The notes below the pieces were generated by a model. It was given only the letters and a program-made list of their open reading frames with translations, was not told the DNA's origin and searched no databases. A DNA stretch of 64,000 bases from Sphingomonas sp. R647 (lineage in GTDB: Bacteria > Pseudomonadota > Alphaproteobacteria > Sphingomonadales > Sphingomonadaceae): positions 248,001-312,000 of the forward strand of contig NZ_JAIQXT010000001.1 of assembly GCF_020177055.1 (NCBI RefSeq), written 5' to 3'. Within the stretch, counting starts at the first letter, position 1. Each line of letters starts with the position of its first letter. Shown here in pieces: positions 693 to 22,030 of this stretch. Position numbers and translations under genes: made by a program.

Positions 693-1328
693 TTAGCCCC
701 CCCGCGCAGTGCCATAAGCGCGGCAGAACGTATCGACTGCCGCCGCGATCCGACTCTGATTGCGGACCGTATCATTCTCGCAGCCAAAGTGGCGCTCGAG
801 GTCGCCCAGCCCCTTGCACATTGCGACGAACTGTTCCGCAGCCATCTCCGGGTCTTCCACGGTAATTTCGCCAGCATCGCGTAGCGCACACAAAAGGGCA
901 GTGAAGGCACGCAGCATCTGGCGCGGCCCTGCCTCTAAAAACGCCGCTCCGATCGCGGGGTTCAGCTCCGTTTCGGCGGCGATGCGGCGATCAAACTGGA
1001 CCATCTCGGGACGCGACATGAAGTCCATCATCGCCTTGCCGATCGCTTCGAGGCGGTCGCGCAGCGCCAGGCCCGGCATTGGCGCTATGCTGAAATGCTC
1101 CCCCATCCGGGCGCATTCGCGCTCCACTGCGGCCGCAAACAGGCCGCGTTTGTCCCCGAACTGATTGTAGATCGTGACCTTCGACACATGCGCCGCGACC
1201 GCGATCTGCTCGATCGCAGTCGCAGCAAAGCCGTGCGCGAAAAAGGATCGGGTGGCGGCGTCGAGGATTGCCTGTCGCTTGACGGGATCGATCGAGCGTT
1301 GCGCACGCGTAAGGGTTTTGCTTGACAG
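693..1328 (-). CDS. TetR/AcrR family transcriptional repressor (probable CTG start)
   Basis: This is a one-domain TetR regulator of about 211 residues, predicted to repress the divergent efflux operon. The N-terminal helix-turn-helix is clear (AILDAATRSFFAHGF, then HVSKVTIYNQFGDKRGLF). The C-terminal part resembles the AefR-type ligand domain (ending near FCRAYGTARGG). The first in-frame ATG is at 1187, in the middle of the DNA-binding helix, so it cannot be the start. Upstream to the in-frame stop at 1344-1346 the only near-start codon is CTG at 1328, which gives a normal-looking N-terminus (SSKTLTRAQRS). Either CTG is used or a frameshift has removed the true start: an ATG about 20 bases upstream is in another frame. 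The tandem palindromes lie right at its 5' end, which fits autoregulation. Family confidence is high; the start is uncertain. Confidence 0.8.
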   Translation of the reverse strand: MSSKTLTRAQRSIDPVKRQAILDAATRSFFAHGFAATAIEQIAVAAHVSKVTIYNQFGDKRGLFAAAVERECARMGEHFSIAPMPGLALRDRLEAIGKAMMDFMSRPEMVQFDRRIAAETELNPAIGAAFLEAGPRQMLRAFTALLCALRDAGEITVEDPEMAAEQFVAMCKGLGDLERHFGCENDTVRNQSRIAAAVDTFCRAYGTARGG

Positions 1329-1330
1329 AG

Positions 1331-1365
1331 TGAACGGTCCCGTTCATTTGAACGCCAACGTTCAA
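1331..1365. promoter_or_regulatory. Two tandem TetR-type operators between repressor and efflux operon
   Basis: Two palindromes lie side by side: TGAACGG-TC-CCGTTCA at 1331-1346 and TTGAACG-CCAA-CGTTCAA at 1348-1365. The half-sites TGAACG (1331, 1349) and CGTTCA (1341, 1359) each recur 18 bases apart, so a dimer-of-dimers could bind one face of the helix. A TTGACA at 1322-1327 could be the -35 element of the rightward promoter, placing the operators across it. The binding protein is inferred to be the adjacent TetR product. Confidence 0.75.
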
Positions 1366-1411
1366 CGTAACCCGTTTCCGCGCCAGAGCGCAAGCATGGG
1401 GGCCGCGTCGC

Positions 1412-2548
1412 ATGATCTGGATTGCCATCCGCATGCTCACCGGCGACGCGCAGAAATTCTATGGGCTGGTGTTCGGCATCGCCTTTTCGACCCTGCTGAT
1501 CACGCAGCAGCTGACGATCTTCGTCAACTTGCTCGAACGCGGGGCGAGCGCGGTGTTCAACGTGCCGGCTGCCGATATCTGGGTGATGGACCGCGTCAGC
1601 CGCACCACCGACGTCGCCTATCCGATGCCCAGCACCGCGCTCGACAAGGTCCGCTCGGTCCCCGGGGTCGAATGGGCGGCGCCGCATCTGCGCGCGACCG
1701 CGTCGGTGCGCACCGGCGACGGCGACCTTGAGGGGGTGGCGATCGTCGGGGTCGATGATGCGACGCTGATCGGCCTGCCGCGCCGGATGGCGGAAGGGAG
1801 CATCGATGTGCTGTCGCGCCCCGATACGGTGATCATCGACGATGTCGGCACGACCAACATGTTCGAGGATGGCCGCAGCCCAATCGGCGAGCGGCTGGAG
1901 CTGAACGACCAGCGCGCGGTGATCCGAGGCATCGCCGACGCCGTGCCGAGCTTTACCAGCCAGGTCACGCTCTACAGCAAGTACAGCCAGGCGCTGCGCT
2001 ACGTGCCGGGCACGCGCAACCGGCTGTCGTTCGTGCTGGTGGGGGCCGCGCCGGGGGTGGATCATCAGCAACTGGTCGCGCGGATCGAGGCCGAAACCGG
2101 CCTGCGCGCGCGCACTCGCGACCAGTTTGCGCAGGACGGCATCGACTTCATCGTCGAGAATACCGGCATTCCGCTCAATTTCGGGATTACCGTCGCGTTG
2201 GGCTTCGTCGTTGGCGTGGCGATCGTCGGGCTAACCTTCAGCCTGTTCATCCGCGACAATATCAAGCAGTTCGGGGCGCTGAAGGCGATCGGCGTTGCCA
2301 ATGGCACGATCCGGCGGATGGTCGCGGCGCAGGCGGCACTGGTCGGCCTGATCGGCTATGGCCTTGGCGTTCTGGGCACGATCGCGTTCATCTGGAGCTT
2401 CTCCGCCGTCCCGACCTTCAAGGGCTTCTACATCCCCTGGCAGATCCCGTTGATTAGCCTCGCCGCAGTCGTGCTGATCCTTGCGCTCACCGGCTGGATC
2501 GCGCTGCGCCGCGTGCTCAAGACCGAACCGGCGGCGGTGTTCCGGTGA
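1412..2548 (+). CDS. ABC exporter permease, FtsX/MacB-like (DevC type)
   Basis: This is the inner-membrane permease of a tripartite efflux pump, 378 residues. It has one transmembrane segment near residues 17-40, a periplasmic domain of about 200 residues, and three more segments near 250-275, 306-330 and 346-366. That topology is typical of FtsX-fold (MacB/LolC-like) permeases. The charged stretch before the third segment (IRDNIKQFGALKAIGVANGTIRRM) is the usual coupling-helix signature of the family. It is the first gene of the operon; the GTG of the ATPase gene overlaps its stop codon by four bases. It should transport with the next three gene products. The substrate cannot be read from sequence. 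Confidence 0.85.
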   Translation: MIWIAIRMLTGDAQKFYGLVFGIAFSTLLITQQLTIFVNLLERGASAVFNVPAADIWVMDRVSRTTDVAYPMPSTALDKVRSVPGVEWAAPHLRATASVRTGDGDLEGVAIVGVDDATLIGLPRRMAEGSIDVLSRPDTVIIDDVGTTNMFEDGRSPIGERLELNDQRAVIRGIADAVPSFTSQVTLYSKYSQALRYVPGTRNRLSFVLVGAAPGVDHQQLVARIEAETGLRARTRDQFAQDGIDFIVENTGIPLNFGITVALGFVVGVAIVGLTFSLFIRDNIKQFGALKAIGVANGTIRRMVAAQAALVGLIGYGLGVLGTIAFIWSFSAVPTFKGFYIPWQIPLISLAAVVLILALTGWIALRRVLKTEPAAVFR

Positions 2549-3264
2549 GCGACGCCGCCCCCTCCCAGCCCGCGATCCGCACGCGCGGGGTGACCCGCGA
2601 CTTCATGGCGGGGAGCCAGGCGATCACGGTGCTGCACGGCATCGATGTCGACATTCGTGCCGGGGAGCTGACCTATCTGGTCGGGGAGAGCGGGTCGGGG
2701 AAGACCACGCTGATCTCGATCATGTGCGGCATCCTCTATCCGACGAACGGTGAGGTCGAGGTGTTCGGCACCGACATTTACCGTCTGTCCGATGCCGAGC
2801 TGGTCGCGTTCCGGCTGCGCAATATCGGCTTCATCTTCCAGCAGTATAATCTGATCCCGTCGATCGATGCCGCGAGCAATGCCGCGGTGCCGCTGATCGC
2901 GCAGGGGATGACGCGGGCCGAAGCGCGGGCGCGCGCCGTCGAAATGCTCGCCGCGCTCAACATCGCCGATCAGGCGGACAAGCTGCCCAGCCAGCTGTCG
3001 GGCGGACAGCAGCAGCGCGTGGCGATCGCGCGCGCGTTGGTCCACCGTCCCCGGCTGGTGGTGTGCGACGAGCCAACCGCCGCGCTCGATGCCCGCTCGG
3101 GCCGGCGCGTGATGGACCTGTTGCGCGCGGTGGCGGTCGCCCCCGACCGCGCGTGCATCATCGTGACCCACGACAACCGAATCTTCGATCTCGCCGACCG
3201 CATCCTCCGGCTGGAGGACGGTTCGATCACCCATGACGGCGCGCATATGCCGGAGGACCATTGA
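2545..3264 (+). CDS. ABC exporter ATPase, MacB/LolD-like
   Basis: This is the ATP-hydrolysing subunit of the efflux pump, 239 residues, cytoplasmic. Walker A is GESGSGKTT (47-55), the Q-loop is at 99-100, the signature LSGGQQQR at 151-158, and Walker B with the catalytic glutamate is LVVCDEP (171-177). It closely resembles LolD/MacB/DevA ATPases that pair with FtsX-type permeases. The GTG start sits in the GTGA overlap with the permease stop, and the adaptor ATG overlaps its own stop by one base, so translation of the first three genes is probably coupled. Confidence 0.9.
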   Translation: MSDAAPSQPAIRTRGVTRDFMAGSQAITVLHGIDVDIRAGELTYLVGESGSGKTTLISIMCGILYPTNGEVEVFGTDIYRLSDAELVAFRLRNIGFIFQQYNLIPSIDAASNAAVPLIAQGMTRAEARARAVEMLAALNIADQADKLPSQLSGGQQQRVAIARALVHRPRLVVCDEPTAALDARSGRRVMDLLRAVAVAPDRACIIVTHDNRIFDLADRILRLEDGSITHDGAHMPEDH

Positions 3265-4241
3265 TGCCCGACTGGAAACGGCTGAGCTTTGCCCGGACCA
3301 TCCTGCCGCTGATCGCGGTGGCGAGCCTGGTGCTGGCCGCCCTGTTCATCTGGGGCGGCCTGCCCGACCGCAGCCCGAGCGCACCGCAACGCGAACCGGC
3401 CAAGGCCCCGCCTGCACTCGCCAATGCCGACCGGGTGGCCGGGGCGGGTGTGGTCGAACCGTCGAGCGAGACGATCGACATCGGTGCGCCGCTGTCGGGG
3501 CTGGTGATGGACGTCGCGGTCAGTCCGGGCGTGCGGGTGGTGCCGGGCCAGCCGTTGTTCTCGATCGACGACCGCGCGGTGCGCGCGCAACTGGCCGAGG
3601 CGCTGGCGGCGATCGGCGAGGCACGCGCCGCGATTGCCGAGGCGCAGAGCGCGCGGGCGACGGCGGAGCGTCAGCTTGCCTTGTATCGCGCAGTCGATGA
3701 CCCCGCTGCAGTTGCACGCGCGGAAATCGTGCGGGTCGAGGGTGAAGCCGCCGCCGCCGCCCAGCGCGTCGCGCTCGCCCGCGCACGCCTTGCCGCGGCG
3801 CAGGCGCGGGCGGGGACGGCGCGGACCGAGATTGGCCGGCTGACGGTGCGCGCGCCGATTGCGGGGGAAATCCTGACCGTGAACATCCGGCCGGGCGAGT
3901 TTGTCTCGACCATGGGCGGTACCAGCCAGCCGTTCATCCAGATGGGCGCGACCGATCCGCTGCATGTCCGCATCGACATCGATGAGGAACAGGCCCCGCG
4001 CGTCGCGCTGGGCGCGGCCGCGATCGTCTCGCCGCGCGGTGCTGCAGGACGGCAAGTCGAAGCCCGCTTCGTGCGCGCCGAGCCGCTGATCGTGCCCAAA
4101 CGCTCGCTGACCAACAGCGCGCAGGAGCGGGTCGATGTCCGCGTGCTTCAGCTGATCTACGCCCTGCCCGAAACCAACGGCGCGTTCCGCGTCGGGCAGC
4201 AGGTCGATGCGTTCATCCCGGCGCGCAAGGACGGCAAATGA
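3264..4241 (+). CDS. Periplasmic adaptor (HlyD/membrane fusion protein family)
   Basis: This is a membrane fusion protein of about 325 residues linking the inner-membrane ABC unit to the outer-membrane channel. It has an N-terminal membrane anchor (about residues 12-30). A lipoyl-like half follows (GVVEPSSETIDIGAPLSG), then an alanine/glutamate-rich alpha-hairpin near 105-180. The second lipoyl half (LTVRAPIAGEILTVNIRPGE) and a beta-barrel complete it. The ATG at 3264 overlaps the ATPase stop (TGATG); an in-frame TTG one codon earlier is also possible. Its operon position between ATPase and outer-membrane factor fits a DevB/MacA-type adaptor. Confidence 0.85.
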   Translation: MPDWKRLSFARTILPLIAVASLVLAALFIWGGLPDRSPSAPQREPAKAPPALANADRVAGAGVVEPSSETIDIGAPLSGLVMDVAVSPGVRVVPGQPLFSIDDRAVRAQLAEALAAIGEARAAIAEAQSARATAERQLALYRAVDDPAAVARAEIVRVEGEAAAAAQRVALARARLAAAQARAGTARTEIGRLTVRAPIAGEILTVNIRPGEFVSTMGGTSQPFIQMGATDPLHVRIDIDEEQAPRVALGAAAIVSPRGAAGRQVEARFVRAEPLIVPKRSLTNSAQERVDVRVLQLIYALPETNGAFRVGQQVDAFIPARKDGK

Positions 4242-5698
4242 GCCGGGGTAAGCGCCTTGCCGCGCTGGCCCTGTCTGCGGCGCTTGCGGGGTGCGTGGCG
4301 GGGCCTGCGCCCGAAATCGCGACGCCGACGCCGGAGCTGCCCGCGCGCTTTGCGATGATCCCGCCGGATACCGGCGGTGCCGTCGCCGACCTGTTGCCGA
4401 ACACCGATCCGGGGTTCCTGCGGCTGTCGCGAGAGGCACTGGCGAGCGCGCCGACACTCGGCGAAGCGCTGGCGCGGATCGACGAGGCGCGGGCGCGGCT
4501 CGGGCGGGCGCGGGCGGAGGCGCTGCCGACCATCGGTGCCAATGGCGCGGTGACCGGCACGCGCAGCAACCCCGACCAGTTCGGCGCGAGCCTGCCCCCC
4601 GGCGTCGAGATCGCTGCCGAGCGGGCAAGCTATGCCGCCAACCTGACCGCGCAATGGGACGTCGACCTGTTCGGGCGCGTGCGGGCGCAGCAGCGCGCGG
4701 CACAGGCGCGGCTCGACGTCGCCACCGCATCGGCGCAGGCGGTGCGGATCGCGCTGGTGGGTGAGATCGCCGCGACCGTGATCGACTGGCGCACCGTGTC
4801 TGCCCGCCGCGACGCACTGACGGAGAATCTGGCGGCGGCCGAGCGGCTGGGCGCGCTGGCCGGGAGCCGGGCGCGCGCGGGGCTCGTCTCCGGCCTCGAT
4901 CCGGTTCAGGCACGCGCGCTGGCGGAGACCGCACGGACGCGGCTGGCGGCGCTGGCGGGCGAAGAGGCGCGGCTGATCGGGCGGCTGACGACGCTGACGG
5001 CACAGGATGCGGACCGCGTGCGCGCGGCGCTGCGGATGCCGCCGCAGCCGGTGCTGGTCGACGCGGCGGAGCTGGCCCCAGCAGCGGTCACCTATCCCGC
5101 CCCGCCCACACTGCCCGCGACCTTGTTGCAGAACCGGCCCGACATTCTCGCGGCGGGGGCGATGCTGGAGGCGCAGGATGGCGAATTGGCGGCGGCGGCG
5201 CGGCGGCGGTTTCCCACCCTGCGGCTCGACGCGTCGCTCGGCCTGCTCGCATTCGGCCTGGGCAATCTGTTCGACAGCGACTCGCTGGTGGGCTCGCTCG
5301 GCGCCTCACTTGCCGCGCCGCTGCTCGATTTCGGGCGGATCGCGGCGGATATCGACGCGGCGGCTGCGGGCAAGCGCGCGGCGTTTCAGGCCTATCGCGG
5401 CGCGGTCTACACGGCGCTGGGCGAGGCCGAGGCAGCCTATGGCGTGATTGCCGCAGCCGACCGCGAGGAACTGGCGGCGCGGCGCGAGCTGATCGCGCTC
5501 GACCGCGCCGTCCGGCTGATCGCCGACCGCCAGCGCGCCGGGCTTGCCGATATGACGGCGCTCACCGAGGCGCGCCGGCAAGCGCTCGCCAGCCGCGAGC
5601 GGGCGGTGGCAGCCGAGGGCCGCGCCGCCCGCGCGCGCGTCGCGCTGTGGCAAGCGCTGGGCGGCGCCCCCACCGACGCGCTCGATAGTGCCGGGTGA
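4238..5698 (+). CDS. Outer-membrane efflux channel lipoprotein, NodT family
   Basis: This is a TolC-like outer-membrane factor of 486 residues. A lipoprotein signal peptide ends in the lipobox LAGC (Cys at residue 18), as in NodT/OprM proteins. Two repeated halves rich in long alpha-helices follow, including the family hallmarks NLTAQWDVDLFGR and, in the second half, ASLAAPLLDFGRIAADIDAA. The ATG overlaps the adaptor stop codon by four bases. It completes a four-gene export machine controlled by the divergent TetR regulator. Confidence 0.9.
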   Translation: MSRGKRLAALALSAALAGCVAGPAPEIATPTPELPARFAMIPPDTGGAVADLLPNTDPGFLRLSREALASAPTLGEALARIDEARARLGRARAEALPTIGANGAVTGTRSNPDQFGASLPPGVEIAAERASYAANLTAQWDVDLFGRVRAQQRAAQARLDVATASAQAVRIALVGEIAATVIDWRTVSARRDALTENLAAAERLGALAGSRARAGLVSGLDPVQARALAETARTRLAALAGEEARLIGRLTTLTAQDADRVRAALRMPPQPVLVDAAELAPAAVTYPAPPTLPATLLQNRPDILAAGAMLEAQDGELAAAARRRFPTLRLDASLGLLAFGLGNLFDSDSLVGSLGASLAAPLLDFGRIAADIDAAAAGKRAAFQAYRGAVYTALGEAEAAYGVIAAADREELAARRELIALDRAVRLIADRQRAGLADMTALTEARRQALASRERAVAAEGRAARARVALWQALGGAPTDALDSAG

Positions 5699-5945: not shown

Positions 5946-6494
5946 TCAGCCCTGCCCTTGGCGCTGAATGAAGGCTGGCGGCACTCGCTCTGTGAGCCAC
6001 ACTTGGTTGCTTGTCAGAAAGAAGGGCTGGCCCGTTTCTGCGAGCGATGAAGCGGAGACGGTCAGGATCACCGGAGTGCCCCGCCGCTGCCCGACACGGG
6101 TTGCAGTTTCGAGATCCGGCGACAGGTGCACATGGTGGCGGCGCATCGGGCGCAAGCCTTCAATCAGAATGGCAGGCAGGAATCGCTCGACCGTCCCATG
6201 ATAGAGAAACTCGGGCGGAGGGACTTGTGGCCAATCGAGTTCGACCGCGACCGAATGGCCCTGGCGTGCCCGGATACGCGCCGCATCGCCGGAAAGTTCA
6301 AAACGCTGCTTGTCGCTCTCCTCGACGACGCGCAGCAGGTTCTGCCAGTCACATGCGACTCCCGCCCCTGCGATCGCCCGCAAGACGTCATCGACATCGG
6401 TCCAGCCCTGCGGATCAAGCGTCAGCCCTGCCGCCTCCGGCTTGTGCCGTAGCCAGAGTGACAGCATCTTCGACAATTGAACCTTGTCCGGCAT
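5946..6494 (-). CDS. kptA: RNA 2'-phosphotransferase, KptA/Tpt1 family
   Basis: The family transfers an internal RNA 2'-phosphate to NAD+, giving ADP-ribose 1'',2''-cyclic phosphate, with an ADP-ribosyltransferase fold. The protein is 182 residues, normal for bacterial KptA. The winged-helix N-terminal lobe has SKMLSLWLRHKPEAAGL, with the catalytic Arg16-His17 pair. IRARQGHS carries the next conserved arginine (Arg75). The C-terminal lobe has YHGTVERFLPAILIEGL, HHVHLSPDLETA and VGQRRG (Arg137/138). The four-residue Arg-His-Arg-Arg active site therefore looks complete. I chose the ATG at 6494 because the family begins just before the LSKMLSLWLRHKP motif. It lies 88 bases downstream of the ternary-system operon, on the same strand. 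It could be an independent accessory enzyme or the system's effector. Confidence 0.9.
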   Translation of the reverse strand: MPDKVQLSKMLSLWLRHKPEAAGLTLDPQGWTDVDDVLRAIAGAGVACDWQNLLRVVEESDKQRFELSGDAARIRARQGHSVAVELDWPQVPPPEFLYHGTVERFLPAILIEGLRPMRRHHVHLSPDLETATRVGQRRGTPVILTVSASSLAETGQPFFLTSNQVWLTERVPPAFIQRQGQG

Positions 6495-6582: not shown

Positions 6583-9516
6583 TCAAAAAGCCGCCACCAC
6601 TCCAGCTGCGATATCGATACGCAGAACTCTTCCGCTCTGGTCGGCCAACAAGACGACGCCCGATTGATCGCCTGCGCGCGCAACAGGCGCGATCCTGGTC
6701 CCGCGTGCGACGCAGATCAGGGATGAGTCCTCACGATGCGATATCGTCATGTGCGCCGGTTTCTGCCCTGCAGTTGCCAATCGCGTTCTGACATTTCCGT
6801 CGCCATTCACAGCGGAGCCAATGGTCGCTCGGGCACGATTGAAATCGCCGCTTTGAAACGCGTCGGGAGTGGGGTCATTTTCGCAACGGACAGCCATGAT
6901 TTTTGCGATTTCGCGCTCATCCCGGTCGGACCAAGCAACAAATGGCAGCTTGGCATCGCTTCGCAGATCATCGAGCGGCAGATAAAGTTGGCCCCACCAC
7001 CACGACGATGGCGGCACGATCTTTTGATCTCTGCCTGATGCAAGTGGCCGCAGGATCTGTGCGGTAAGATCCTTGCCCTGGCTCAGCGTCCATTTCTCGA
7101 GCAATCCTTCGCGGCCAGGCTGTAATGTTCGTGTGATCCAGGCGGGTGCGTGCGCATCCTGAAAGAAGCTCACGACGCGTACGGATGGGGTTAGGGCGCA
7201 GGACCAGAGAAACTCGATCACAGGCATGTCGGCGCAGAGCTTGACCAGATCGATCGCGCCGATCTGGCCGCCGATCTGGACGAGCCACTGCCCCTCCGAG
7301 GTGACATCGTGGTACGCAACCAGGTCGAGGGTGCCGATCGGGTGGAAGCGTCGCGAGTGTGTCGAGAAGCGCGTAAGCCGCTTCACGCCGTTCGGCTGGC
7401 TGCTCATTCCTTGAACGAGGATGACATTCGGCCCGCTGCCGACCGCGACCAGTGCCTCGACCTCGCTGACATTGGCCTGCCACAGCAGCGTGCCATGGCG
7501 GTCGAGCAGCTGCATCAGATCATTCTGGCGGGACAGGAGCATGGTGCCGTTATGCAGCAGGCAGGCATGGACGACTGGCGACGCGGTCGCCGAAGGGGGC
7601 GGCAAGGTCCAATCGGTAGTTGGAGTTGGGGGCGCCGCATGGATCTTGCGCAGCTTGCCGAGATCCGCCGCCAGCACCTCGAGTGACGCCTGCTTGAGAA
7701 GGTGCGTCAATGTGCCCAGTTCGCGCTGGATGGGGCCGTTAGGGGCAAGTTCCAAACTCGCGCGTACGAAATTCTCAATGACGATGGGCGCGGGACCAGC
7801 CCAGAATGCGTTCTGCTCGGGAGCCTCGCGATTGATCAGTCGCATCATTGCGCTCAGGAAATCAATCGCATCCTCGCCCGGTCTTTTTCCTTCATGCAGG
7901 ATCAGCGCCTGAGTGCTGGCGAGCGCGACGTCGGCCGCCGTGTTTCCGGTACGAGGTAGCTGCGGGAACGCAGCAAAGTCTCGGCCCGCCCACGGACCGG
8001 TCAGCAGCGCACGAACGATCAGTTCGCTGGCGCGCGCATCCTCGTCTGACGCTTCAAACGCGTCGCGCAACCACATCCTGCGCGCATCGATCAATGCTGC
8101 ATTCGCGTCGTGGCGGCTTGCCACATCGTCAGTCACCTGGAGCGCGCGTAGCTGTTGGCCTGTCGCGACGAGCATATCGGTCCAGGCCTTCAAGACATAG
8201 GCGTGGAACTCGGGATGGCTGGTTCGACTGTCCTCTGCCAGTGCATCGAAGCAACCATTCCGGCGCGCCAATGCCAAAGCCGTGTCATGCTCTCCAGCCT
8301 TGTAGAACAGGCGAATGTACAGCGTCGGATTCAGCTTGGCGTCGAGCGCAAGCCTGGCCCCATCGGCGAACAGGCCGCCACGCTCGAGTGTCAGCACGGC
8401 ATTCTGATGATCGCCCAGGAGTTGAGCGCGAATATAGGCGGCACGCCGGTAATCCCCCTGGCGTTCCAGCGTGTCAGCCAGCTGGAGGTAGCGCGACCGC
8501 AGGGCATGGAAACTCGCATCGCCGAGGATCGGCATGGCGACGCCGCCAAAACCGATATTGAAATCGAGAGATACGCGCATGCCCGGAAGGCGATTTGGGA
8601 AGAGCTTTCGTCCTGACTTTCCGTCCGGATTGCCCAGCTTGAGCGCCAGCTTGAGTGCGCCGTCGATATCGCCGGATTGCATCAACTTCTCGACCAGCTG
8701 CATCCGATTGCCGAACGCTGCGATCAACCCTTTGCCGAGGGGGGTGTGCCAGCGCACCCAGCCTGCCAAATTCTCGAGCACGCCCGGTTCGTTCTTGCTG
8801 CCGCCCGTTGCGCCGTCACCTTTTCCGCCAATGCCCGCATCACCGATCAGTCTGGCGGGCAGAAGCGAACCCAACGCCTGACGAAAGATCGCTCCAAGTT
8901 TGGTCCGCTCGTGCAAGGCTTGGAGTGCGCGGTCGGTTTCCTCAAACGCCGCGACGCTTTGCTGCCGGATTGGGACCGGCGCCTCAGTAACGCCTTCGGT
9001 GGCGCGGCTCGAAACGGTGTGCATTTCGCCGTCAGCTCGCGACATGGTTGAGCGGTGCACGGTGATCCTTGGCAGGTCCCACAGCATCAGCACCGAGACG
9101 GCTTCCAAGGCGTCGAGTATGATGCTGTGTGCCTGACCATTCCACCACAGCCTCAGCCGTCTGGGGGATGCGTGCGAGGGCGCGAAGCGGGGGCCATCGG
9201 CACCGCCCAGATAGCTTGCCAGCCACTCGCCATTCCGGGTCAGCGGCAGTGCCGCAGCTATCGTGCACGGGTCGATCTGAACCGGCCGATCGAAAGTCAC
9301 GACGAAAATCGAGACGTGCGGATCGTCGCTCAACCTGCCTTGCCAGATACCCGATACGTGATCGCGCACGCGGCGCAGCGGGGCGGGGTCCCACTCTCGA
9401 TCTCCGATCACGACGATGCCGTCGAGTGCGGTGCCCAGAGGAATCGTGGGCTGCAGTGGGAATGCCGGGCCGAGTGCCGCCCGGCTGCGGACAGCGGCGA
9501 AACTGCGGTCAGCCAT
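6583..9516 (-). CDS. Large ternary-system protein: bpX6-like N-terminus, helical repeats, C-terminal propeller
   Basis: This is a 977-residue protein without signal peptide or membrane segments, the last of four coupled genes. About residues 10-150 (GTALDGIVVIGDREWDP, IFVVTFDRPVQIDPC) resemble, by pattern, the bpX6 domain of MoxR-vWA-beta-propeller ternary systems. Residues around 360-560 are helix-rich with TPR-like character (YLQLADTLERQGDYRRAAYIRAQ). From about 670 onward come repeated beta-blade-like units (LLHNGTMLLSRQNDLMQLLDRHGTLLWQ), ending in VVLLADQSGRVLRIDIAAG, which suggests a PQQ-like propeller. The ATG at 9516 overlaps the upstream gene by eight bases. Its role is inferred from gene neighbourhood: a scaffold or sensor for the ATPase-vWA pair. 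The bpX6 assignment is from memory of the family pattern, not from a search. Confidence 0.65.
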   Translation of the reverse strand: MADRSFAAVRSRAALGPAFPLQPTIPLGTALDGIVVIGDREWDPAPLRRVRDHVSGIWQGRLSDDPHVSIFVVTFDRPVQIDPCTIAAALPLTRNGEWLASYLGGADGPRFAPSHASPRRLRLWWNGQAHSIILDALEAVSVLMLWDLPRITVHRSTMSRADGEMHTVSSRATEGVTEAPVPIRQQSVAAFEETDRALQALHERTKLGAIFRQALGSLLPARLIGDAGIGGKGDGATGGSKNEPGVLENLAGWVRWHTPLGKGLIAAFGNRMQLVEKLMQSGDIDGALKLALKLGNPDGKSGRKLFPNRLPGMRVSLDFNIGFGGVAMPILGDASFHALRSRYLQLADTLERQGDYRRAAYIRAQLLGDHQNAVLTLERGGLFADGARLALDAKLNPTLYIRLFYKAGEHDTALALARRNGCFDALAEDSRTSHPEFHAYVLKAWTDMLVATGQQLRALQVTDDVASRHDANAALIDARRMWLRDAFEASDEDARASELIVRALLTGPWAGRDFAAFPQLPRTGNTAADVALASTQALILHEGKRPGEDAIDFLSAMMRLINREAPEQNAFWAGPAPIVIENFVRASLELAPNGPIQRELGTLTHLLKQASLEVLAADLGKLRKIHAAPPTPTTDWTLPPPSATASPVVHACLLHNGTMLLSRQNDLMQLLDRHGTLLWQANVSEVEALVAVGSGPNVILVQGMSSQPNGVKRLTRFSTHSRRFHPIGTLDLVAYHDVTSEGQWLVQIGGQIGAIDLVKLCADMPVIEFLWSCALTPSVRVVSFFQDAHAPAWITRTLQPGREGLLEKWTLSQGKDLTAQILRPLASGRDQKIVPPSSWWWGQLYLPLDDLRSDAKLPFVAWSDRDEREIAKIMAVRCENDPTPDAFQSGDFNRARATIGSAVNGDGNVRTRLATAGQKPAHMTISHREDSSLICVARGTRIAPVARAGDQSGVVLLADQSGRVLRIDIAAGVVAAF

Positions 9517-11494
9517 GGCTCGCGAGATCCGGGTCGATGTCGATTGCCGCGGAGGCAAGTCCGGCGAGATCGAAGCGCGAGCAGCGGTGCGGGCCATCAC
9601 GATGCTTGTTGTACCAGAGCAACTCCGCCGGCGCGCCATCGGCATCGACCGTAACTGCCCAGATTCCGTCATCGGCTATCTGGACCTGCGCGATATCGGC
9701 CGCGTCGTCACCCAGTCTGAGCAACGAGCGATGCGCTTTGGGCGTAGCACCTCGTGTCTGCGTACCATCGTCGTTGAATGTAACGCTCTTCATGACGCCT
9801 TCGCCGCCCGACCGGGCGTCCGACCAGATGGTCGCGGTCAAGTCCCCGTCCATCACCTTTGCCATCAGCGGCGTGTCATGCGGTGCCACGTCGAAGGTGC
9901 GGTTGGCTTCACGCCCCGCCACCGTCCACACATTCGGTCGAACGCTGTAGGCGAGGCTGCTGTGCGAACCCGAATAGGCCATTCCGAACAACTCTTTGGG
10001 AACGAGCGGATCGCCGTGCTCCGGATAGGACGCAACCATCGTGTTGTTCCTCCGCATAACTTTGAGCGACGCGGTCAATTCACCCTGGTCCCGGATGACG
10101 CGATGCACACCATTGGCGTGCAGGATCTGCGGGCGGTTATGCAGGACCTGAAAAACGCGTTCGTGATCCTGCGCTCCAAATGCGACGCCGAACTCGCGGT
10201 GATGGGTGGAGTAGAATCGCAGTCCTGGGCCATCGAATAACGGCGGTAGCGCATAAGCGGGCTGACGCTTGAACAGGTGCTGCACGGTAGCTGGATGCGA
10301 CTGCACTTGCCGCGCCGTGATCGGGTTCATCCTGAGCGACAAATCGACTGAGGTCAGGATCAGCATGTCGCTGCCCGATCGTGCTGTCTGCAGTAGCACC
10401 GCAAGGTAATTTTTCGCGCGGAGGCTGATGCCCGCGAGCTTCGTATCGGCTTCGATCCGCAGGAAGTAGCTTTCTTTAACTTTCGACGCGCCCCCGAAAA
10501 TCAGGATCAGTACGCCATGTTTGAGGCGCACAATCCTCGCTGCTGTGTGCGGCATGAGGAGATAGCGCGGTTCCCAACCGACTGGCTGCGCCGTCTTCGG
10601 GAGCTGGCCGGACGGTCGCGCGACCGGTTTGATGGGTGCGAAAGGCTGATTGAGCGCTGACAAGCACACCGTGTCGGAGGGAAATTCAATGAGTGCCCGC
10701 TGAACATCCCGGCCGCCACGTCGAATTGTGATCTCCGCCGTTCGGGGCGCCGCGTCACTTTGGGGGAGCAGCGAAAAAGCCAGCGCCCGGCCCGAATGGT
10801 GTACGGCACGGGGTGATCGCTCCGTTGACCGCCTGTCGCTTGCGCCGACCACCCAATCGATGTGCCGCGCGCTCGGCGCAGCAATCGTATCCGAGGTCAG
10901 GCGTTCCCAGCATTGTTCCGCGGCGATTACATCGTCGATGCTTGCCTCGACATAGCTTGCGGCGCGCAGAAACCGCTTGATCGTGTTCACCGACAGGCTG
11001 TCGAACCAGATGGCACCTTCTGTGCGTGGCAGAAAACACCAGTGGAACGCGGCGCCACGGGTCGCCGCAATGCGCGCCATGAAGAAGATCGTGGCCAAAG
11101 CGAGGATGCGGCCGTGCCCCAGAAGGCCGGGACCAACCGAAATCATCAGCCGATAAACCGGCTTTACGCCGGGGTCTGAATATTCCCGCTCCAAGTAGAG
11201 CGCTTCCGATTCCGCTATTCGGCGCAGAAACTCGAGCGGGGCTTCGCTGCGCAGGAGCAACTCGCTCTGCACGATATGCGCGATGTCGCCGCGCGTCGTG
11301 ATGCTGCCCAGCCCTTCGAAATTTCCCTGCGGACGCAGTTCGGTCTCGTCGAATCCAGCCAGCAAGCGCTCAAATTGCGCGAGCTGCCCGTGCATTAACT
11401 GGCGCAATGGCGTCGATAACTGCTCGAACACTGGCAGAAAGATCGCATAGGCAGCTGGCAGCGGCCGACCCGATATGGCGGCGCCCGAGGTCAT
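9509..11494 (-). CDS. Ternary-system protein with degenerate vWA-like domain and C-terminal beta-rich/propeller region
   Basis: This is a 661-residue cytoplasmic protein. Around residues 110-190 there is a Rossmann-like block, PVYRLMISVGPGLLGHGR followed by an alpha-helix and RGAAFHWCFL. Its order matches the first strand, helix and second strand of a von Willebrand A domain. The metal-binding DxSxS is not intact: the site reads SVGPG. From about residue 270 to the end the sequence is beta-rich with repeated strand-turn units (LILIFGGASKVKESYFLRIEAD, IWAVTVDADGAPAELLWY), consistent with a propeller. The ATG at 11494 overlaps the previous stop (ATGA), so it is coupled to the small upstream gene. 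It should be the substrate- or partner-binding arm of the MoxR ATPase. Exact domain names need a profile search. Confidence 0.6.
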   Translation of the reverse strand: MTSGAAISGRPLPAAYAIFLPVFEQLSTPLRQLMHGQLAQFERLLAGFDETELRPQGNFEGLGSITTRGDIAHIVQSELLLRSEAPLEFLRRIAESEALYLEREYSDPGVKPVYRLMISVGPGLLGHGRILALATIFFMARIAATRGAAFHWCFLPRTEGAIWFDSLSVNTIKRFLRAASYVEASIDDVIAAEQCWERLTSDTIAAPSARHIDWVVGASDRRSTERSPRAVHHSGRALAFSLLPQSDAAPRTAEITIRRGGRDVQRALIEFPSDTVCLSALNQPFAPIKPVARPSGQLPKTAQPVGWEPRYLLMPHTAARIVRLKHGVLILIFGGASKVKESYFLRIEADTKLAGISLRAKNYLAVLLQTARSGSDMLILTSVDLSLRMNPITARQVQSHPATVQHLFKRQPAYALPPLFDGPGLRFYSTHHREFGVAFGAQDHERVFQVLHNRPQILHANGVHRVIRDQGELTASLKVMRRNNTMVASYPEHGDPLVPKELFGMAYSGSHSSLAYSVRPNVWTVAGREANRTFDVAPHDTPLMAKVMDGDLTATIWSDARSGGEGVMKSVTFNDDGTQTRGATPKAHRSLLRLGDDAADIAQVQIADDGIWAVTVDADGAPAELLWYNKHRDGPHRCSRFDLAGLASAAIDIDPDLASHG

Positions 11495-11937
11495 GCAGCG
11501 ATGCGCCACGCGCGATACGGCTTCAGTTCGCCAATTGCGTACAGGTCGGCGTGATTAGAGATTGTCGCCGCGTCATCGAAGCGCGGTACGAGAATGAGCG
11601 GCGCGCGCGCAGAATGGGCCGATAGCAACGCGTCCCGCATGGCCGCGCGCGCGATAGCCGGCGCTGCGGATTCCACTCCCACCGGCAGCCACCAGCCGGG
11701 GGCCTCCGGGTACAAAGCGACGCCGCCCAGATTCGGTAGAAACAGTTCAGGAGGATTACGCTCTGCGATCAGCGAGGCAGCAAATATCGCGATCCAGTCC
11801 TCGCCATGAGCGACCCGCAGATCATCGAACAGCCGAGACTTGCTTGCCAGGCGCTCGATGACCCTTGCCACGGCACCACTGCCACAAATGATCTGCGCTC
11901 CGACCTCCTGAACCGGCGCGATGCGGCGCCAGTGCAT
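11491..11937 (-). CDS. Small ternary-system protein, bpX5-like
   Basis: This is a 148-residue protein starting MHWRRIAPVQEVGAQ. The block LFLPNLGGVALYPEAPGWWLPVGVES is followed by a helix and PLILVPRF. This tryptophan-arginine opening, the central ...LYP.A...WLPV block and the small size match my recollection of the bpX5 domain that follows MoxR in ternary operons. The ATG at 11937 overlaps the MoxR stop codon by one base (TGATG) and its own stop overlaps the next ATG, so it is firmly inside the operon. No enzyme motif is visible. It is probably an adaptor between the ATPase and the vWA/propeller proteins. Confidence 0.6.
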   Translation of the reverse strand: MHWRRIAPVQEVGAQIICGSGAVARVIERLASKSRLFDDLRVAHGEDWIAIFAASLIAERNPPELFLPNLGGVALYPEAPGWWLPVGVESAAPAIARAAMRDALLSAHSARAPLILVPRFDDAATISNHADLYAIGELKPYRAWRIAA

Positions 11938-13256
11938 CAGTCGATCCTGCCGGGAAGGTTGCCTTCCCATGGGCGCGCCGATGGAGGTGCTACTTTGGCG
12001 ACGACTGGATTGGCCGCTGGGGGGACGGAGTCGCGATGCGGCGACATGGATGCCGCGCTCATCGTTTCGGGCGAGGCGGCTGGGGCAGTGGGGGCGTCCA
12101 GCACGCTCTGGATGCTGGCGCGCAAGACGCGAAGGGATTGGGGCAGCGTATCGCCCGCGAATGCCGCGTCGATCCGCGTCAACATCGTTTCCAGCCGCAC
12201 AAGCCAGATTTCGTGTAACCGATCCGTCGCCAACGCGGGGCGTTCCTCAAGCAGCAATGTCGCTTGCTCGGTCAGCTTTGCGGCGTGTGCGGTGGGGCCG
12301 TAGGTTGCCTGGGCGACGCTATCGACCAGCACTGGATTGAAACTCTCCTTCAGCTCGGCATGGAGCAACTCGCTTGCCTCAGCCTGCTGTGCCTTGTCCT
12401 GCACCAGATAGGTGACCGGCCAGAGATCCTGAGGCCCGGCCGATTTCGCGCCCCTTAGAAGCGCGGCCGCCGCAACCAGCTTTTGTGCCTTCACGATCTT
12501 GCGGTCGGACAGTGGTACGCCGATGAGCCGCATCTTGCGGACGACATGGGCAAACAAGTCGGTCACCTCGCTCATGTCGATGTCGAGTGACGCCCGGTGC
12601 AGGTCTGCGATCACCGAGGTATTGAGCGGTGGCGGCGGATCAGTTTCCTCGATGTTCATCCGCCAGCCTGTCCTGAGCAAAGCGGGCAGGTCGCCGTCGC
12701 CGACCGGATCGACAAACATGGTCAGCAGGAAACGGTCGGCAAATGCTGCGAGCGTCGTATCCTCCGGTAATGCGTTGGAGGCAGCGATGCACGAAATCAA
12801 CGGCGTCGTGACGCTGAACTGCCCGCGCCGATAGGTGCGTTCGTTGAGTATCTTCAGCAGTGTGTTGAGGATCGCGGTGGAGCCAAGAAAGATCTCGTCG
12901 AGAAACGCCACCTCGGCCTGAGGCAGCATGCCGCTCGTCACCGGTTCGACGCGCCCTTCCTTAAGCGCATTGAGGTCGAGTGCCCCAAACAGCTCCGATG
13001 GTTCGGTAAAGCGCCCGAGCAGGTACTCAAACGTGTTCGCTTCGATTGCCCCGGCGACCGCTTGCACCGCGGCGGACTTGCCAGTGCCGGGAGGGCCGAT
13101 CAGCAGGACATGCTCGCGCGCCACAAGCCCAAGCATGACGAGTTCAAGCAAGGCACGCCGCGCGACGAACCGCGCGCTCAGGCGATCAATATGCAGCCTC
13201 AGCGTGGCAGCCGCTTCCACGCTTGCAGCATCGCGAGGTTCCGAGCTGATCATCAT
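11937..13256 (-). CDS. MoxR-family AAA+ ATPase of a MoxR-vWA-beta-propeller ternary system
   Basis: This is a 439-residue AAA+ ATPase. Walker A is GPPGTGKS (54-61), Walker B VAFLDE (116-121), sensor 1 AASN (158-161) and the arginine finger ADRF (173-176). These, with FLGSTAILNTLLKILNER, mark the MoxR branch. A C-terminal helical extension of about 200 residues ends in a proline/alanine-rich tail. MoxR ATPases act as chaperones or remodellers with vWA partners; here a vWA-like gene is two positions downstream. I start at ATG 13256, which has a G-rich stretch (GGGGG) about 11 bases upstream; ATG 13295 is an alternative. It is the first gene of the four-gene minus-strand operon and has no sensor kinase or toxin motif of its own. 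Confidence 0.85.
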   Translation of the reverse strand: MMISSEPRDAASVEAAATLRLHIDRLSARFVARRALLELVMLGLVAREHVLLIGPPGTGKSAAVQAVAGAIEANTFEYLLGRFTEPSELFGALDLNALKEGRVEPVTSGMLPQAEVAFLDEIFLGSTAILNTLLKILNERTYRRGQFSVTTPLISCIAASNALPEDTTLAAFADRFLLTMFVDPVGDGDLPALLRTGWRMNIEETDPPPPLNTSVIADLHRASLDIDMSEVTDLFAHVVRKMRLIGVPLSDRKIVKAQKLVAAAALLRGAKSAGPQDLWPVTYLVQDKAQQAEASELLHAELKESFNPVLVDSVAQATYGPTAHAAKLTEQATLLLEERPALATDRLHEIWLVRLETMLTRIDAAFAGDTLPQSLRVLRASIQSVLDAPTAPAASPETMSAASMSPHRDSVPPAANPVVAKVAPPSARPWEGNLPGRID

Positions 13257-13529: not shown

Positions 13530-14119
13530 GGTGACGAGACGCTCGGCAGGCGCGTGCAGTGAAGCACCGGCGATTGTCGATCGCCTGCACGATGTCTCCC
13601 TGTCGATTTGGGAGCTCCAGCGTCGCCGACGGAGTCGAGGAACCGGCCTCTTGCTGAACCCGCTGAATCTGGTCGGCCAGCCGCGCGATGGGTTCCCATC
13701 CGTCCATGGGCCTGAACTGGCCGACGGAACCGTATTAGTCGATGCTGTGATCGACGAAGTGCTGCGGCTGGAGGGCCCGGTGCGGGGGCGTCGGGCGCGT
13801 TGCTACCGCGGATGTGGTGAACGGCGATCATCGGATTGCGTCGGGCGATCTCGTCTACCGCATGCTTGCCGATGCCAATCGCGATCCGGATCGGTTCGAC
13901 GACCCCGAGCGCTTCGATCCCGCGCGTATGGCGGGCGGGCATCTGGCGTTCGGATCGGGGATGACGCACTGCCTCGGCGCGCATCTGGCTCGGCTGGAGG
14001 CGCGCATCGTACTCGACCGGCTGCGCCCGCTGCTCGTCGGCGCCACCCGGGCTCCGTCCGATGACTGGAGCCCGGTACGGCTGTTGCGCCAGCGCAACAG
14101 CCTGAGGATCGCCTTCTGA
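13530..14119 (+). pseudogene. Cytochrome P450 remnant, truncated and frameshifted
   Basis: Only the C-terminal half of a bacterial class-I P450 remains. In the first frame, K-helix-like sequence VIDEVLRLEGPV is readable at about 13745-13783. The frame then shifts at a G-run (13784-13788). The second frame carries GRVATADVVNGDHRI, ANRDPDRFDDPERFDPAR and the haem-binding loop FGSGMTHCLGAHLARLEA, ending at 14119. The I-helix and everything before it are missing. The 273 bases between it and the MoxR operon (13257-13529) hold nothing recognisable. The remnant marks an edge of the accessory block. Confidence 0.85.
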
Positions 14120-19058: not shown

Positions 19059-20444
19059 TCAGCCCGCCCGCAACCGCGTGAGCAGTTGCGGGTAGGGCGG
19101 CACGTGCTCCGTCGCTTGTGCGAGACGGGTGGCGAGTGCGTCCATTGCGTGCGCGGCGCGTGCGGGATCGACCGAGGCGCTGAGCGGGTCGATTGCATCC
19201 GGTGTTAGGCTGAGACCAATCAGCGACGCGAGCCACGCGTCGGTCTCGAACGGCTCGCCCTCGAACGGGGGAAGACGGCCGCGGCGTTTGAATTGTTCAA
19301 GCGTGCGGGCGAGACCTTCGGGAAGCGGGGCGGTCAGTTTCCCGGCGCGCCGATGGTGGAGCGCGTGGAAGTCGCGCATCCGCGTCGAAACCGCCCGGCT
19401 GCGACGGTTATATTCGGCGATCTCGGCGTGTCCGAAGTCTCGGCCCGGCAACAGGTCCAGCGCCAGCAGGATCGCATCCTGAGCAAGATGGAGCGCGCTA
19501 CCGAACAGCGGGTCGATCGCGGTCGCAGCGTCGCCGATCGCCAGCATGTTGCCGATCCAAGGCGTGCGGCGGCCGAAGCGCACCGCGACGCCGCCGGTGT
19601 CGTCGCTGAGTTCGATCGACCGTGTCCGCTCCGCGAGCGGAGATTGCCAGCGCCAGCCGGTTGCGGTTGTTTCGGCGCGGTCGAGCGGATCGACGGCATC
19701 GCCCGGCACGTCGCGCACCGCCATTGAGCGGCCCGGAAGCCACGAATCCCACGGCTCGAACTCCGCTTCATCGCGGGAGCGCAGCAACGCGTGAGGACCC
19801 GAGCAGTCGAGGTACAGGTCGGCGGTGACACGACCGCCATCGGCTGTCCCTACGGCAGCGATCGCACCATCCTCGCCGCGCTCCACGGAGGCGAACGGCG
19901 CGTGGCGTGGCAGCAGGGCGGTCAGCGTGTCGAGCCGCGCGCGATAGCGGGGAGGATCGATGCGCAGCGCGTAGAGAAATCCGCCGAGCGGCGAGGCGGG
20001 GTCGGGGCTGGGGTGGACGAACCTCCCCGCCGCGCCGAGCAATGCCGCCGCGCCGTAGCGCCAATAGGGTGCCGCAGCTCCCGCCTGAAACGCGCGATGC
20101 CACAGCGTATGGAACGGGATGTCGCCGGCCTTCAGGCCGTGTTCGCCGAAGCCGTGGACCCAATCCTGCTGCTCTTGCGGCCAGTTGACGAAGCGGGCGC
20201 CGAGCAGATGCGTCGCGATCCCATCGCATATCAGCTCCCGCTCGTCGAGGCCGATCGCGGCGTGAAAGCGGTGGATGCTCGGCCAGGTCGCGCACTGTAT
20301 TTCGGCAACCGCCGCCGGGTCGGGGGCGGCGGGCACGATCGATACCTCGACCTGCGGCAGGGCGCGGGCGAAGGCCGCCGCCGCGGACAGACCGACGATC
20401 CCGTCGCCGACCACGCAGACCGAGCGGATCGCGCGCGCGCTCAT
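19059..20444 (-). CDS. PF04820-family flavoprotein, probably not a working halogenase
   Basis: This is a 461-residue FAD-dependent protein of the tryptophan halogenase family, the last gene of the receptor operon. The N-terminal dinucleotide motif is altered (GDGIVG). Aligned with its neighbour, the position of the catalytic lysine (TYKLGIEF there) reads THLLGARF here, so Lys is replaced by Leu80. The conserved GEATLP reads QCATWP, and the WxWxIP signature is GWRWQSPL. FAD-binding features remain toward the C-terminus (IGDAATAIDPLFGSALH). It overlaps the upstream paralogue by four bases (ATGA). I infer a non-halogenating partner or an enzyme with changed chemistry. Confidence 0.75.
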   Translation of the reverse strand: MSARAIRSVCVVGDGIVGLSAAAAFARALPQVEVSIVPAAPDPAAVAEIQCATWPSIHRFHAAIGLDERELICDGIATHLLGARFVNWPQEQQDWVHGFGEHGLKAGDIPFHTLWHRAFQAGAAAPYWRYGAAALLGAAGRFVHPSPDPASPLGGFLYALRIDPPRYRARLDTLTALLPRHAPFASVERGEDGAIAAVGTADGGRVTADLYLDCSGPHALLRSRDEAEFEPWDSWLPGRSMAVRDVPGDAVDPLDRAETTATGWRWQSPLAERTRSIELSDDTGGVAVRFGRRTPWIGNMLAIGDAATAIDPLFGSALHLAQDAILLALDLLPGRDFGHAEIAEYNRRSRAVSTRMRDFHALHHRRAGKLTAPLPEGLARTLEQFKRRGRLPPFEGEPFETDAWLASLIGLSLTPDAIDPLSASVDPARAAHAMDALATRLAQATEHVPPYPQLLTRLRAG

Positions 20445-21958: not shown

Positions 21959-22030
21959 GCCATGACCCTCAAACGACAGGAGCCGAAGAGCAAGGCTCTC
22001 CGGCTCCCATGTTGATGCCAACCGCTCCGG

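What the first reader, a model, noticed from the sequence alone, without database searches (positions are those of the whole stretch)
6583..13256. Four-gene MoxR-vWA-beta-propeller ternary system in an accessory block
The sequence shows four minus-strand genes joined by 1-8 base overlaps: a MoxR AAA+ ATPase with full Walker and sensor motifs, a 148-residue protein, a 661-residue protein with a vWA-like block, and a 977-residue protein ending in propeller-like repeats. Established knowledge: such ternary operons (bpX domains) were predicted by comparative genomics to be NTP-driven conflict or stress systems, with little experimental work. The bpX5 and bpX6 labels are my pattern-based inference. 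A broken P450 gene lies beside it, consistent with a variable island between the efflux operon and the sugar cluster.
Basis: partly seen in the sequence, partly recalled or inferred. Interest (0 to 1): 0.85.

Follow-up and report, generated by a model that had tools for sequence, protein, structure and literature searches.

The report
Membrane-free branch of MoxR conflict machine
This unit of four overlapping genes is a scattered, divergent relative of a bacterial ATP-driven protein machine that is predicted to help cells resist viruses or stress, and its branch lacks an aspartate thought to bind metal and, in nearly all copies, the predicted membrane anchor that most of its relatives have.

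Summary
In detail: four minus-strand genes overlap by 1, 4 and 8 bases, a bpMoxR AAA+ ATPase and proteins of 148, 661 and 977 aa. Pfam knows only the ATPase. Profile comparison ties gene 2 to bpX5-slot proteins and the core of gene 4 to bpX6-bearing ones; the bpX6 domain itself and the vWA fold stayed inconclusive. Models give a C-terminal propeller in gene 3, and a solenoid plus propeller in gene 4. The order recurs in 27 of 30 loci. The Sphingomonas-Caulobacter branch has Ser or Ala in 72 of 72 proteins where 124 of 124 relatives examined have Asp, P-loop GTGKS instead of GTAKS, and a strongly hydrophobic segment before the solenoid in 1 of 57 gene-4 proteins (10 of 13 bpX6-type loci have one). 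It is sporadic (4 of 151 genomes), with changing flanks, and related copies are under purifying selection. Most likely it is a cytosolic variant of the predicted MoxR-vWA-beta-propeller systems. The conflict role is inference without clear support from the flanks. A KptA gene follows 88 nt downstream.

The parts
11937..13256 (-). Gene 1: MoxR AAA+ ATPase (bpMoxR, PF20030), 439 aa, P-loop GPPGTGKS
   Evidence: Pfam 253.6 bits, cut-off 27; RavA is the nearest solved structure by sequence, E 2.1e-37; motifs; start and stop
11491..11937 (-). Gene 2: 148-aa protein in the bpX5 slot; divergent bpX5 homologue by profile comparison
   Evidence: No Pfam, PADLOC or NCBIfam hit; hhalign to bpX5-slot sets E 1.7e-6 and 2e-5 with L027, 1e-4 and 7.1e-4 without
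9509..11494 (-). Gene 3: 661-aa adaptor: N-terminal helices, vWA-like domain, C-terminal beta-propeller
10760..11173 (-). vWA-like domain of gene 3 (residues 113-250 of the 666-aa reading); Ser at 11138-11140 stands where relatives have Asp
   Evidence: Strand-helix-strand topology; 70 Ser and 2 Ala of 72 against Asp in 124 of 124; direct comparison with ViaA, YehP and YfbK not significant
9530..10585 (-). beta-propeller of gene 3
6583..9516 (-). Gene 4: 977-aa scaffold: N-terminal beta domain, alpha-solenoid, C-terminal beta-propeller
   Evidence: 57 proteins found, the window's own among them; model pLDDT 79.4, pTM 0.68; core homologous to three bpX6-bearing proteins, 99%
9067..9450 (-). N-terminal beta domain of gene 4, same place as bpX6 in relatives; identity to bpX6 not established
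   Evidence: mean pairwise identity 0.35 against 0.48 in the solenoid
7651..8520 (-). alpha-solenoid (TPR-like) of gene 4
   Evidence: helices 333-622 in the model
6586..7614 (-). beta-propeller of gene 4

Best explanation
The four genes encode a divergent Sphingomonas-Caulobacter variant of the MoxR-bpX5-vWA/propeller-bpX6 cassette, and the variant would work as a cytosolic, ATP-driven switch in which a MoxR ring, likely coupled through a metal-free vWA-like adaptor, remodels a solenoid-propeller scaffold when a trigger is sensed. Shown here: gene order, bpMoxR identity, homology of genes 2 to 4 to the cassette of bpX6-bearing genomes (for gene 4 its core), absence of the Asp that relatives have, and absence of a strongly hydrophobic segment between the N-terminal domain and the solenoid. 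Predicted by models: propellers in both large proteins and the solenoid. Inferred from RavA-ViaA and NorQ-NorD: the ATPase forms a hexamer and uses gene 3 as adaptor. Inferred from divergence: the N-terminus of gene 4 and the propeller of gene 3 are the surfaces that meet changing partners. Inferred from family and spread: the trigger is an invader or a stress. Not tested: any contact, any activity, any phenotype.
For: bpMoxR 253.6 bits. All four genes in one order in 27 of 30 loci including the window; of the other three, L014 and L062 are cut by contig ends and in L028 gene 2 was seen by position only. A four-gene run in Hymenobacter by annotation, its gene 2 not recognised by profile (E 0.025). 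In L021 the slots are bpMoxR 302.9, bpX5 176.7 and bpX6 203.4 bits. L027 is a bridge: 130 and 158 bits for genes 3 and 4; its gene 2 was taken into the profile by iteration, so its 118 bits are self-inclusive. Branch traits: Ser/Ala in 72 of 72 against Asp in 124 of 124; GTGKS in 13 of 13 loci (12 of the branch and L027) against GTAKS in 16 of 16; hydrophobic segment, same aligned measure, in 1 of 57 branch proteins and 1 of 11 branch loci against 10 of 13 bpX6-type loci. The 12 branch MoxRs form one clade, support 100/99. Sporadic: 4 of 151, and bpX6 in 14 of 199. Flanks systematically shared by one pair of 15 loci. Omega 0.035-0.57, MoxR lowest in 5 of 5 pairs, gene 4 N-terminus above its solenoid in 5 of 5.
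Against: The vWA fold rests on model topology, slot and the place of the Asp; direct profile comparison with three E. coli vWA domains was no better than controls. The bpX6 domain is not recovered. No phage match to gene 3 or to L021's gene 4, and no viral contig found for gene 3. Flanks look mostly metabolic. PADLOC matches near cassettes include one gene each for DpdF and MzaA, but controls also had matches. P0114 and L011 of the branch do carry a hydrophobic segment; L057, L058 and L061 fall below 1.8 on the aligned measure, as does L028, and on the wider measure L049 (broken), L060 and L061 do, so anchor loss is neither complete nor unique. No omega exceeds 1, so there is no sign of an arms race by that measure. 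The 124 relatives are the best 120 of 232 plus four loci, mostly Pseudomonas where named, so the Asp contrast is between two groups rather than across the whole family.
Confidence: 0.55

Rival explanations
1. A chaperone for maturing a host enzyme or respiratory complex, as RavA-ViaA and NorQ-NorD do, not a conflict system.
For: The ATPase is closest to RavA among solved structures. Commonest flank families are metabolic or transport. Purifying selection on all four genes in five related pairs. RavA-ViaA and NorQD act on respiratory complexes (PMC9489729 and PMC9976466, passages).
Against: Present in only 4 of 151 genus genomes, with changing neighbours and no constant client gene beside it. 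NorD needs its MIDAS to activate its client, and this branch lacks the Asp.
Confidence: 0.25
2. A five-gene unit in which the KptA/Tpt1 RNA 2'-phosphotransferase at 5946-6494 is the effector or the repair arm.
For: KptA is 88 nt downstream on the same strand, is the only copy in the genome, and is rare in the genus, 6 of 151. One other cassette genome, G118, also has KptA.
Against: No ORF of the loci held at that time, L001-L028, matched it; only the window's own did. L048-L061 were not tested. In G118 it lies on another contig than the cassette. The gap of 88 nt contrasts with 1-8 nt overlaps upstream.
Confidence: 0.1
3. The branch is functionally the same membrane-linked machine as in Pseudomonas; the Asp, P-loop and hydrophobic-segment differences are neutral drift.
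For: Methylobacterium L027 mixes traits (GTGKS with Asp and a hydrophobic segment), and L011 and P0114 keep a hydrophobic segment.
Against: The three traits go together in one supported clade, and the residue that replaced Asp is nearly constant (70 Ser, 2 Ala of 72).
Confidence: 0.1

Closest known systems
Beta-propeller-containing MoxR-vWA ternary systems (Kaur et al. 2020, subsystem 4; Pfam bpMoxR, bpX5, bpX6)
   Same: bpMoxR; adaptor predicted to end in a propeller; third component with predicted solenoid and propeller; extra small gene in the same slot as bpX5; faster-evolving N-terminus of the large protein; scattered spread
   Different: Genes 2, 3 and 4 lie below Pfam recognition; P-loop GTGKS instead of the often-seen TAKS form; Ser for the first vWA Asp; no membrane-spanning segment in the window protein
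Pseudomonas syringae clade 2b-a cassette in RGP_32: ravA, bpX5, a protein with fold match 6ND4, bpX6 (PMC9677677, Table 2)
   Same: The four entries are listed one after another; the third has no sequence family and was named by a fold match (6ND4, an SSU-processome entry as far as I recall), as gene 3 here matches SSU-processome propellers; lies in a region of genome plasticity
   Different: Genes 2 and 4 recognised as bpX5 and bpX6; other genus; no experiment in the parts of that paper I saw
RavA-ViaA
   Same: MoxR ATPase plus a partner gene; RavA E 2.1e-37
   Different: ViaA is a helical domain plus a vWA domain with a MIDAS (PMC9489729, passages); two genes only

Membership tests
MoxR-vWA-beta-propeller ternary system (Kaur 2020 subsystem 4) | MoxR AAA+ of the bpMoxR family | tested here: met
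   253.6 bits against cut-off 27
MoxR-vWA-beta-propeller ternary system (Kaur 2020 subsystem 4) | vWA domain in the adaptor | tested here: inconclusive
   Topology fits; hhalign of the gene-3 family to the Hymenobacter adaptor 87.5%, E 3.5e-6 over 115 columns that include its LLDTT motif; no significant match to ViaA, YehP or YfbK vWA
[quoted passage not shown]
MoxR-vWA-beta-propeller ternary system (Kaur 2020 subsystem 4) | third component with C-terminal TPR and propeller regions | tested here: met
MoxR-vWA-beta-propeller ternary system (Kaur 2020 subsystem 4) | highly variable N-terminal region in the third component | tested here: met
   Identity 0.35 and 0.28 in N-domain and linker against 0.53 and 0.48 in the helical core (51 of 57 proteins aligned); omega higher than the solenoid in 5 of 5 pairs. 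The propeller of gene 3 is as variable, 0.31
MoxR-vWA-beta-propeller ternary system (Kaur 2020 subsystem 4) | membrane-spanning segment in that N-terminal region (the authors say it is included; taken here as typical, not strictly defining) | tested here: not met
   Window protein maximum 1.21 in the aligned stretch; 1 of 57 family proteins at 1.8 or more
MoxR-vWA-beta-propeller ternary system (Kaur 2020 subsystem 4) | two MIDAS aspartates (the authors say a subset lacks one or both) | tested here: not met
   First Asp is Ser; the strand-4 position reads DWVVGA, no TD
Pfam bpX5 (PF19921) | score over the curated cut-off | tested here: not met
   No match at E 10; homology only by profile comparison
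Pfam bpX6 (PF19922) | score over the curated cut-off for the N-terminal domain | tested here: not met
   No match at E 10; N-domain profile comparison E 0.021 and 0.066, control 0.03
RavA-ViaA | equivalog score for RavA (NF010054) | tested here: not met
   139.7 bits against cut-off 681
Known anti-phage defence system (PADLOC-DB 2.0.0) | strong match of the components | tested here: not met
   No match for genes 2-4 at E 1; four weak matches for gene 1, best 6.7e-5

The most novel reading that the evidence does not exclude
In the Sphingomonas-Caulobacter branch a whole AAA+ conflict machine has been rewired together: the MoxR-vWA couple runs without a metal site, the scaffold has left the membrane, and the ATPase has a canonical P-loop again. 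It would be a self-contained cytosolic defence switch whose recognition is carried by propellers and the N-terminal domain instead of a MIDAS.
Probability: 0.35. Interest if true: 0.72.

Novelty: new variant of a known kind. Interest (0 to 1): 0.48.

Why it matters
The beta-propeller MoxR systems were predicted from comparative genomics. My literature searches, judged from listings and abstracts, showed no experiments on them. A compact, probably membrane-free four-gene version of 6.7 kb is a practical entry point. It also asks whether a MoxR-vWA couple can work without the MIDAS that NorD needs.

Tried and rejected
Pfam, PADLOC and NCBIfam scans of genes 2-4 gave nothing over a cut-off, and scanning 44 aligned members of the gene-3 family gave only single weak hits. 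The single-sequence genome scan found nothing; the alignment scan found 9 loci. bpX5 rang in 0 of 289 genomes of the class and in no control genome, so the tool warns that this does not show absence. Phages: gene 3 protein, L021's gene 4 protein and 1848 bases of the window (7836-9683) found no match; the gene-3 pattern scan of viral contigs confirmed none. PDB sequence searches with the gene-3 and gene-4 profiles and the Hymenobacter gene 3 gave only chance-level matches. The vWA fold could not be proven by comparison with E. coli vWA domains, nor the bpX6 identity of the N-terminal domain; there L027 scored E 0.0044 against the branch and 0.04 against the bpX6-type N-termini. Defence islands: a rough script called 154 genes near and 168 far from cassettes (it missed KptA in the window); I gave PADLOC 116 and 146 of them, from 12 of 15 genomes. 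Matches at E 1e-10 fell in 38 and 8 families, but 17 of the 25 shown of the 38 are PD-T4-6 models matching one gene each, so I claim no enrichment. KptA as a conserved fifth gene was rejected for lack of a second case. An empty site was not shown: in G069 (82% complete) the efflux operon is 89% identical up to window 5664 and then homology ends; the right-flank gene has no ortholog-like match there. No tRNA in the window and no Rfam match in its first 26 kb. Repeats between 5500 and 15000 were imperfect; one 19-nt inverted pair is listed under noticed. Absence of vWA structures from the fold lists is not evidence, since the propeller filled them.
Full report
OBSERVATION. Pfam recognises only the ATPase: bpMoxR, 253.6 bits. 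PADLOC and NCBIfam add nothing strong for genes 2-4. Gene 3 has 72 homologues in the protein search, and gene 4 has 57 listed proteins including the window's own. Where named they are mostly Sphingomonas, Caulobacter and relatives, with Hellea (gene 4), Novosphingobium and Rhizorhabdus. Nine further loci from named genomes were fetched. I call this set the Sphingomonas-Caulobacter branch; its loci include Hyphomonas and Hellea.

SAME CASSETTE AS bpX5/bpX6. A search for bpX6 across the phylum found 2 of 398 genomes. In one of them, locus L021, the neighbourhood is bpMoxR (302.9 bits), bpX5 (176.7), a 615-aa protein without a family, and bpX6 (203.4), in the order of the window. The window's genes 3 and 4 find the L021 partners directly (41.0 and 50.6 bits). 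Two plasmid records gave bridges. Methylobacterium L027 scores 130 and 158 bits for genes 3 and 4; its gene 2 was drawn into the profile by iteration, so its 118 bits are self-inclusive. Embleya L028 has gene 4 carrying bpX6 at 52.7 bits. A Hymenobacter plasmid has a run of four genes in the same order; gene 4 matches at 97.6%, gene 3 at 87.5%, and gene 2 is not recognised. All four genes were detected in one order in 27 of 30 loci, the window included. L014 and L062 are cut by contig ends, and in L028 the small gene was seen by position.

HOW FAR THE LABELS HOLD. Gene 2 against bpX5-slot proteins (of these only L021's was confirmed with Pfam): hhalign E 1.7e-6 and 2e-5 with L027 in the profile, 1e-4 and 7.1e-4 without it, over 104-109 columns. 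In one search the reversed set and 12 random ORFs gave E 0.12 or worse; the controls gave 0.03 or worse. The core of gene 4 against three bpX6-bearing proteins: 99% probability, E 2.6e-18. Its N-terminal domain against the bpX6 domain: E 0.021 and 0.066, with a control at 0.03, so not established. The vWA domain of gene 3: the model shows helices, then a strand-helix-strand block, then a propeller. The family links to the Hymenobacter adaptor (E 3.5e-6) over a stretch that includes its LLDTT motif; an LLITDA motif follows further on, outside the aligned stretch, seen by eye. Comparison with E. coli ViaA, YehP and YfbK was not better than controls.

WHAT SETS THIS BRANCH APART. At the first vWA Asp, the branch has 70 Ser and 2 Ala in 72 proteins (P0002 and 71 of the 72 found; P0076, a fragment from a eukaryote set, was dropped). 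The wider family has Asp in 124 of 124 (the 120 listed of 232 found, mostly Pseudomonas where named, and four loci). The second Asp is missing in both but TDA stands in Hymenobacter. The P-loop is GTGKS in the 12 branch loci and L027, and GTAKS in the 16 others with a MoxR, the variant that Kaur et al. describe as frequent (PMC7159879, section 22 read). Hydrophobic segment, mean hydropathy 1.8 or more in the stretch aligned to residues 196-346: 1 of 57 branch proteins (P0114), 1 of 11 branch loci (L011), 10 of 13 bpX6-type loci (L057, L058 and L061 below), L027 yes, L028 1.65; L049, L060 and L062 were left out. Over residues 150-520 without alignment: 1 of 11 branch loci, 12 of 15 bpX6-type loci (L049, L060 and L061 below), L027 and L028 yes. 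Hymenobacter has one of 2.92. The 12 branch MoxRs form a clade with support 100/99, and with L027 a clade of 95/93, when rooted on Hymenobacter, whose branch is very long, so polarity is likely but not sure.

SPREAD AND EVOLUTION. Among 15 loci only L006 and L024 share flanking genes systematically; three other single links exist. In G069 the efflux operon beside the window's cassette is 89% identical up to base 5664, and homology stops there. In five pairs of related loci (two of Sphingomonas, three of the bpX6 type, one locus used twice, the window in none) omega is 0.035-0.57, lowest in MoxR in every pair; within gene 4 the N-terminus exceeds the solenoid in 5 of 5 (domain borders carried over by residue number, some dS over 1). 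So related copies are kept by selection while the cassette is scattered. The fastest-changing parts are the N-terminus and linker of gene 4 and the propeller of gene 3, and gene 2 in the two Sphingomonas pairs. In the flanks of 12 genomes the commonest Pfam families were transport, regulators and metabolism (25 of 96 families shown), and PADLOC gave no clear enrichment over control regions.

MECHANISM. From RavA-ViaA and NorQ-NorD (PMC9489729 and PMC9976466, passages), a MoxR hexamer uses a vWA protein as adaptor to remodel a client. Kaur et al. propose the same for the ternary systems (section 8 read). I infer that here genes 1 to 3 form such a motor and gene 4 is the scaffold it holds or releases, in the cytosol. 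NorD needs its MIDAS for client activation but not for binding NorQ, so a branch without the Asp should bind its client another way; the propellers are my candidate. The output is unknown.

LITERATURE. For bpX names the held library listed one relevant paper, the P. syringae comparison (PMC9677677, section 9 and passages seen), whose Table 2 lists ravA, bpX5, a protein with fold match 6ND4 and bpX6 in a region of genome plasticity. I saw no experiment on these systems in searches, judged from listings and abstracts.

VERDICT. Real and scattered, with related copies under selection; a divergent variant of a predicted system.

Noticed in passing
window 5946-6494 (-): KptA/Tpt1 RNA 2'-phosphotransferase (PF01885, 163.6 bits), 88 nt after gene 4, the only copy in the genome and rare in the genus (6 of 151). 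A 28-codon ORF, read by eye, fills the gap and ends in TAATG at the KptA start.
   Followed up: partly
window about 13740-14119 (+): Cytochrome P450 C-terminal fragment in two frames, truncated towards the MoxR gene; possibly a trace of how the cassette arrived.
   Followed up: partly
window 6663-6681 and 13172-13190: A 19-nt inverted repeat, 95% complementary, lies near both ends of the cassette, inside genes 4 and 1; not tested against chance or in relatives.
   Followed up: no
window 718-5664: ABC efflux operon (FtsX, ATPase, HlyD, OEP) 89% identical to G069, where homology ends near the end of the OEP gene.
   Followed up: partly
window 19059-22021 (-): Two adjacent tryptophan halogenase-like genes (232.8 and 625.8 bits) between a TonB receptor gene and GH43/GH31 genes.
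   Followed up: no
L049 6816-11778 (-): In genome G1138 (86% complete) gene 4 is interrupted and the gene 3 ORF is short, while genes 1 and 2 look whole.
   Followed up: no
L079 3174-3803 (+): The Hymenobacter cassette has an extra 209-aa gene directly before its MoxR gene.
   Followed up: no
L021 3501-4865 (-): A pentapeptide-repeat protein gene (454 aa) lies 65 nt downstream of gene 4 in genome G607.
   Followed up: no
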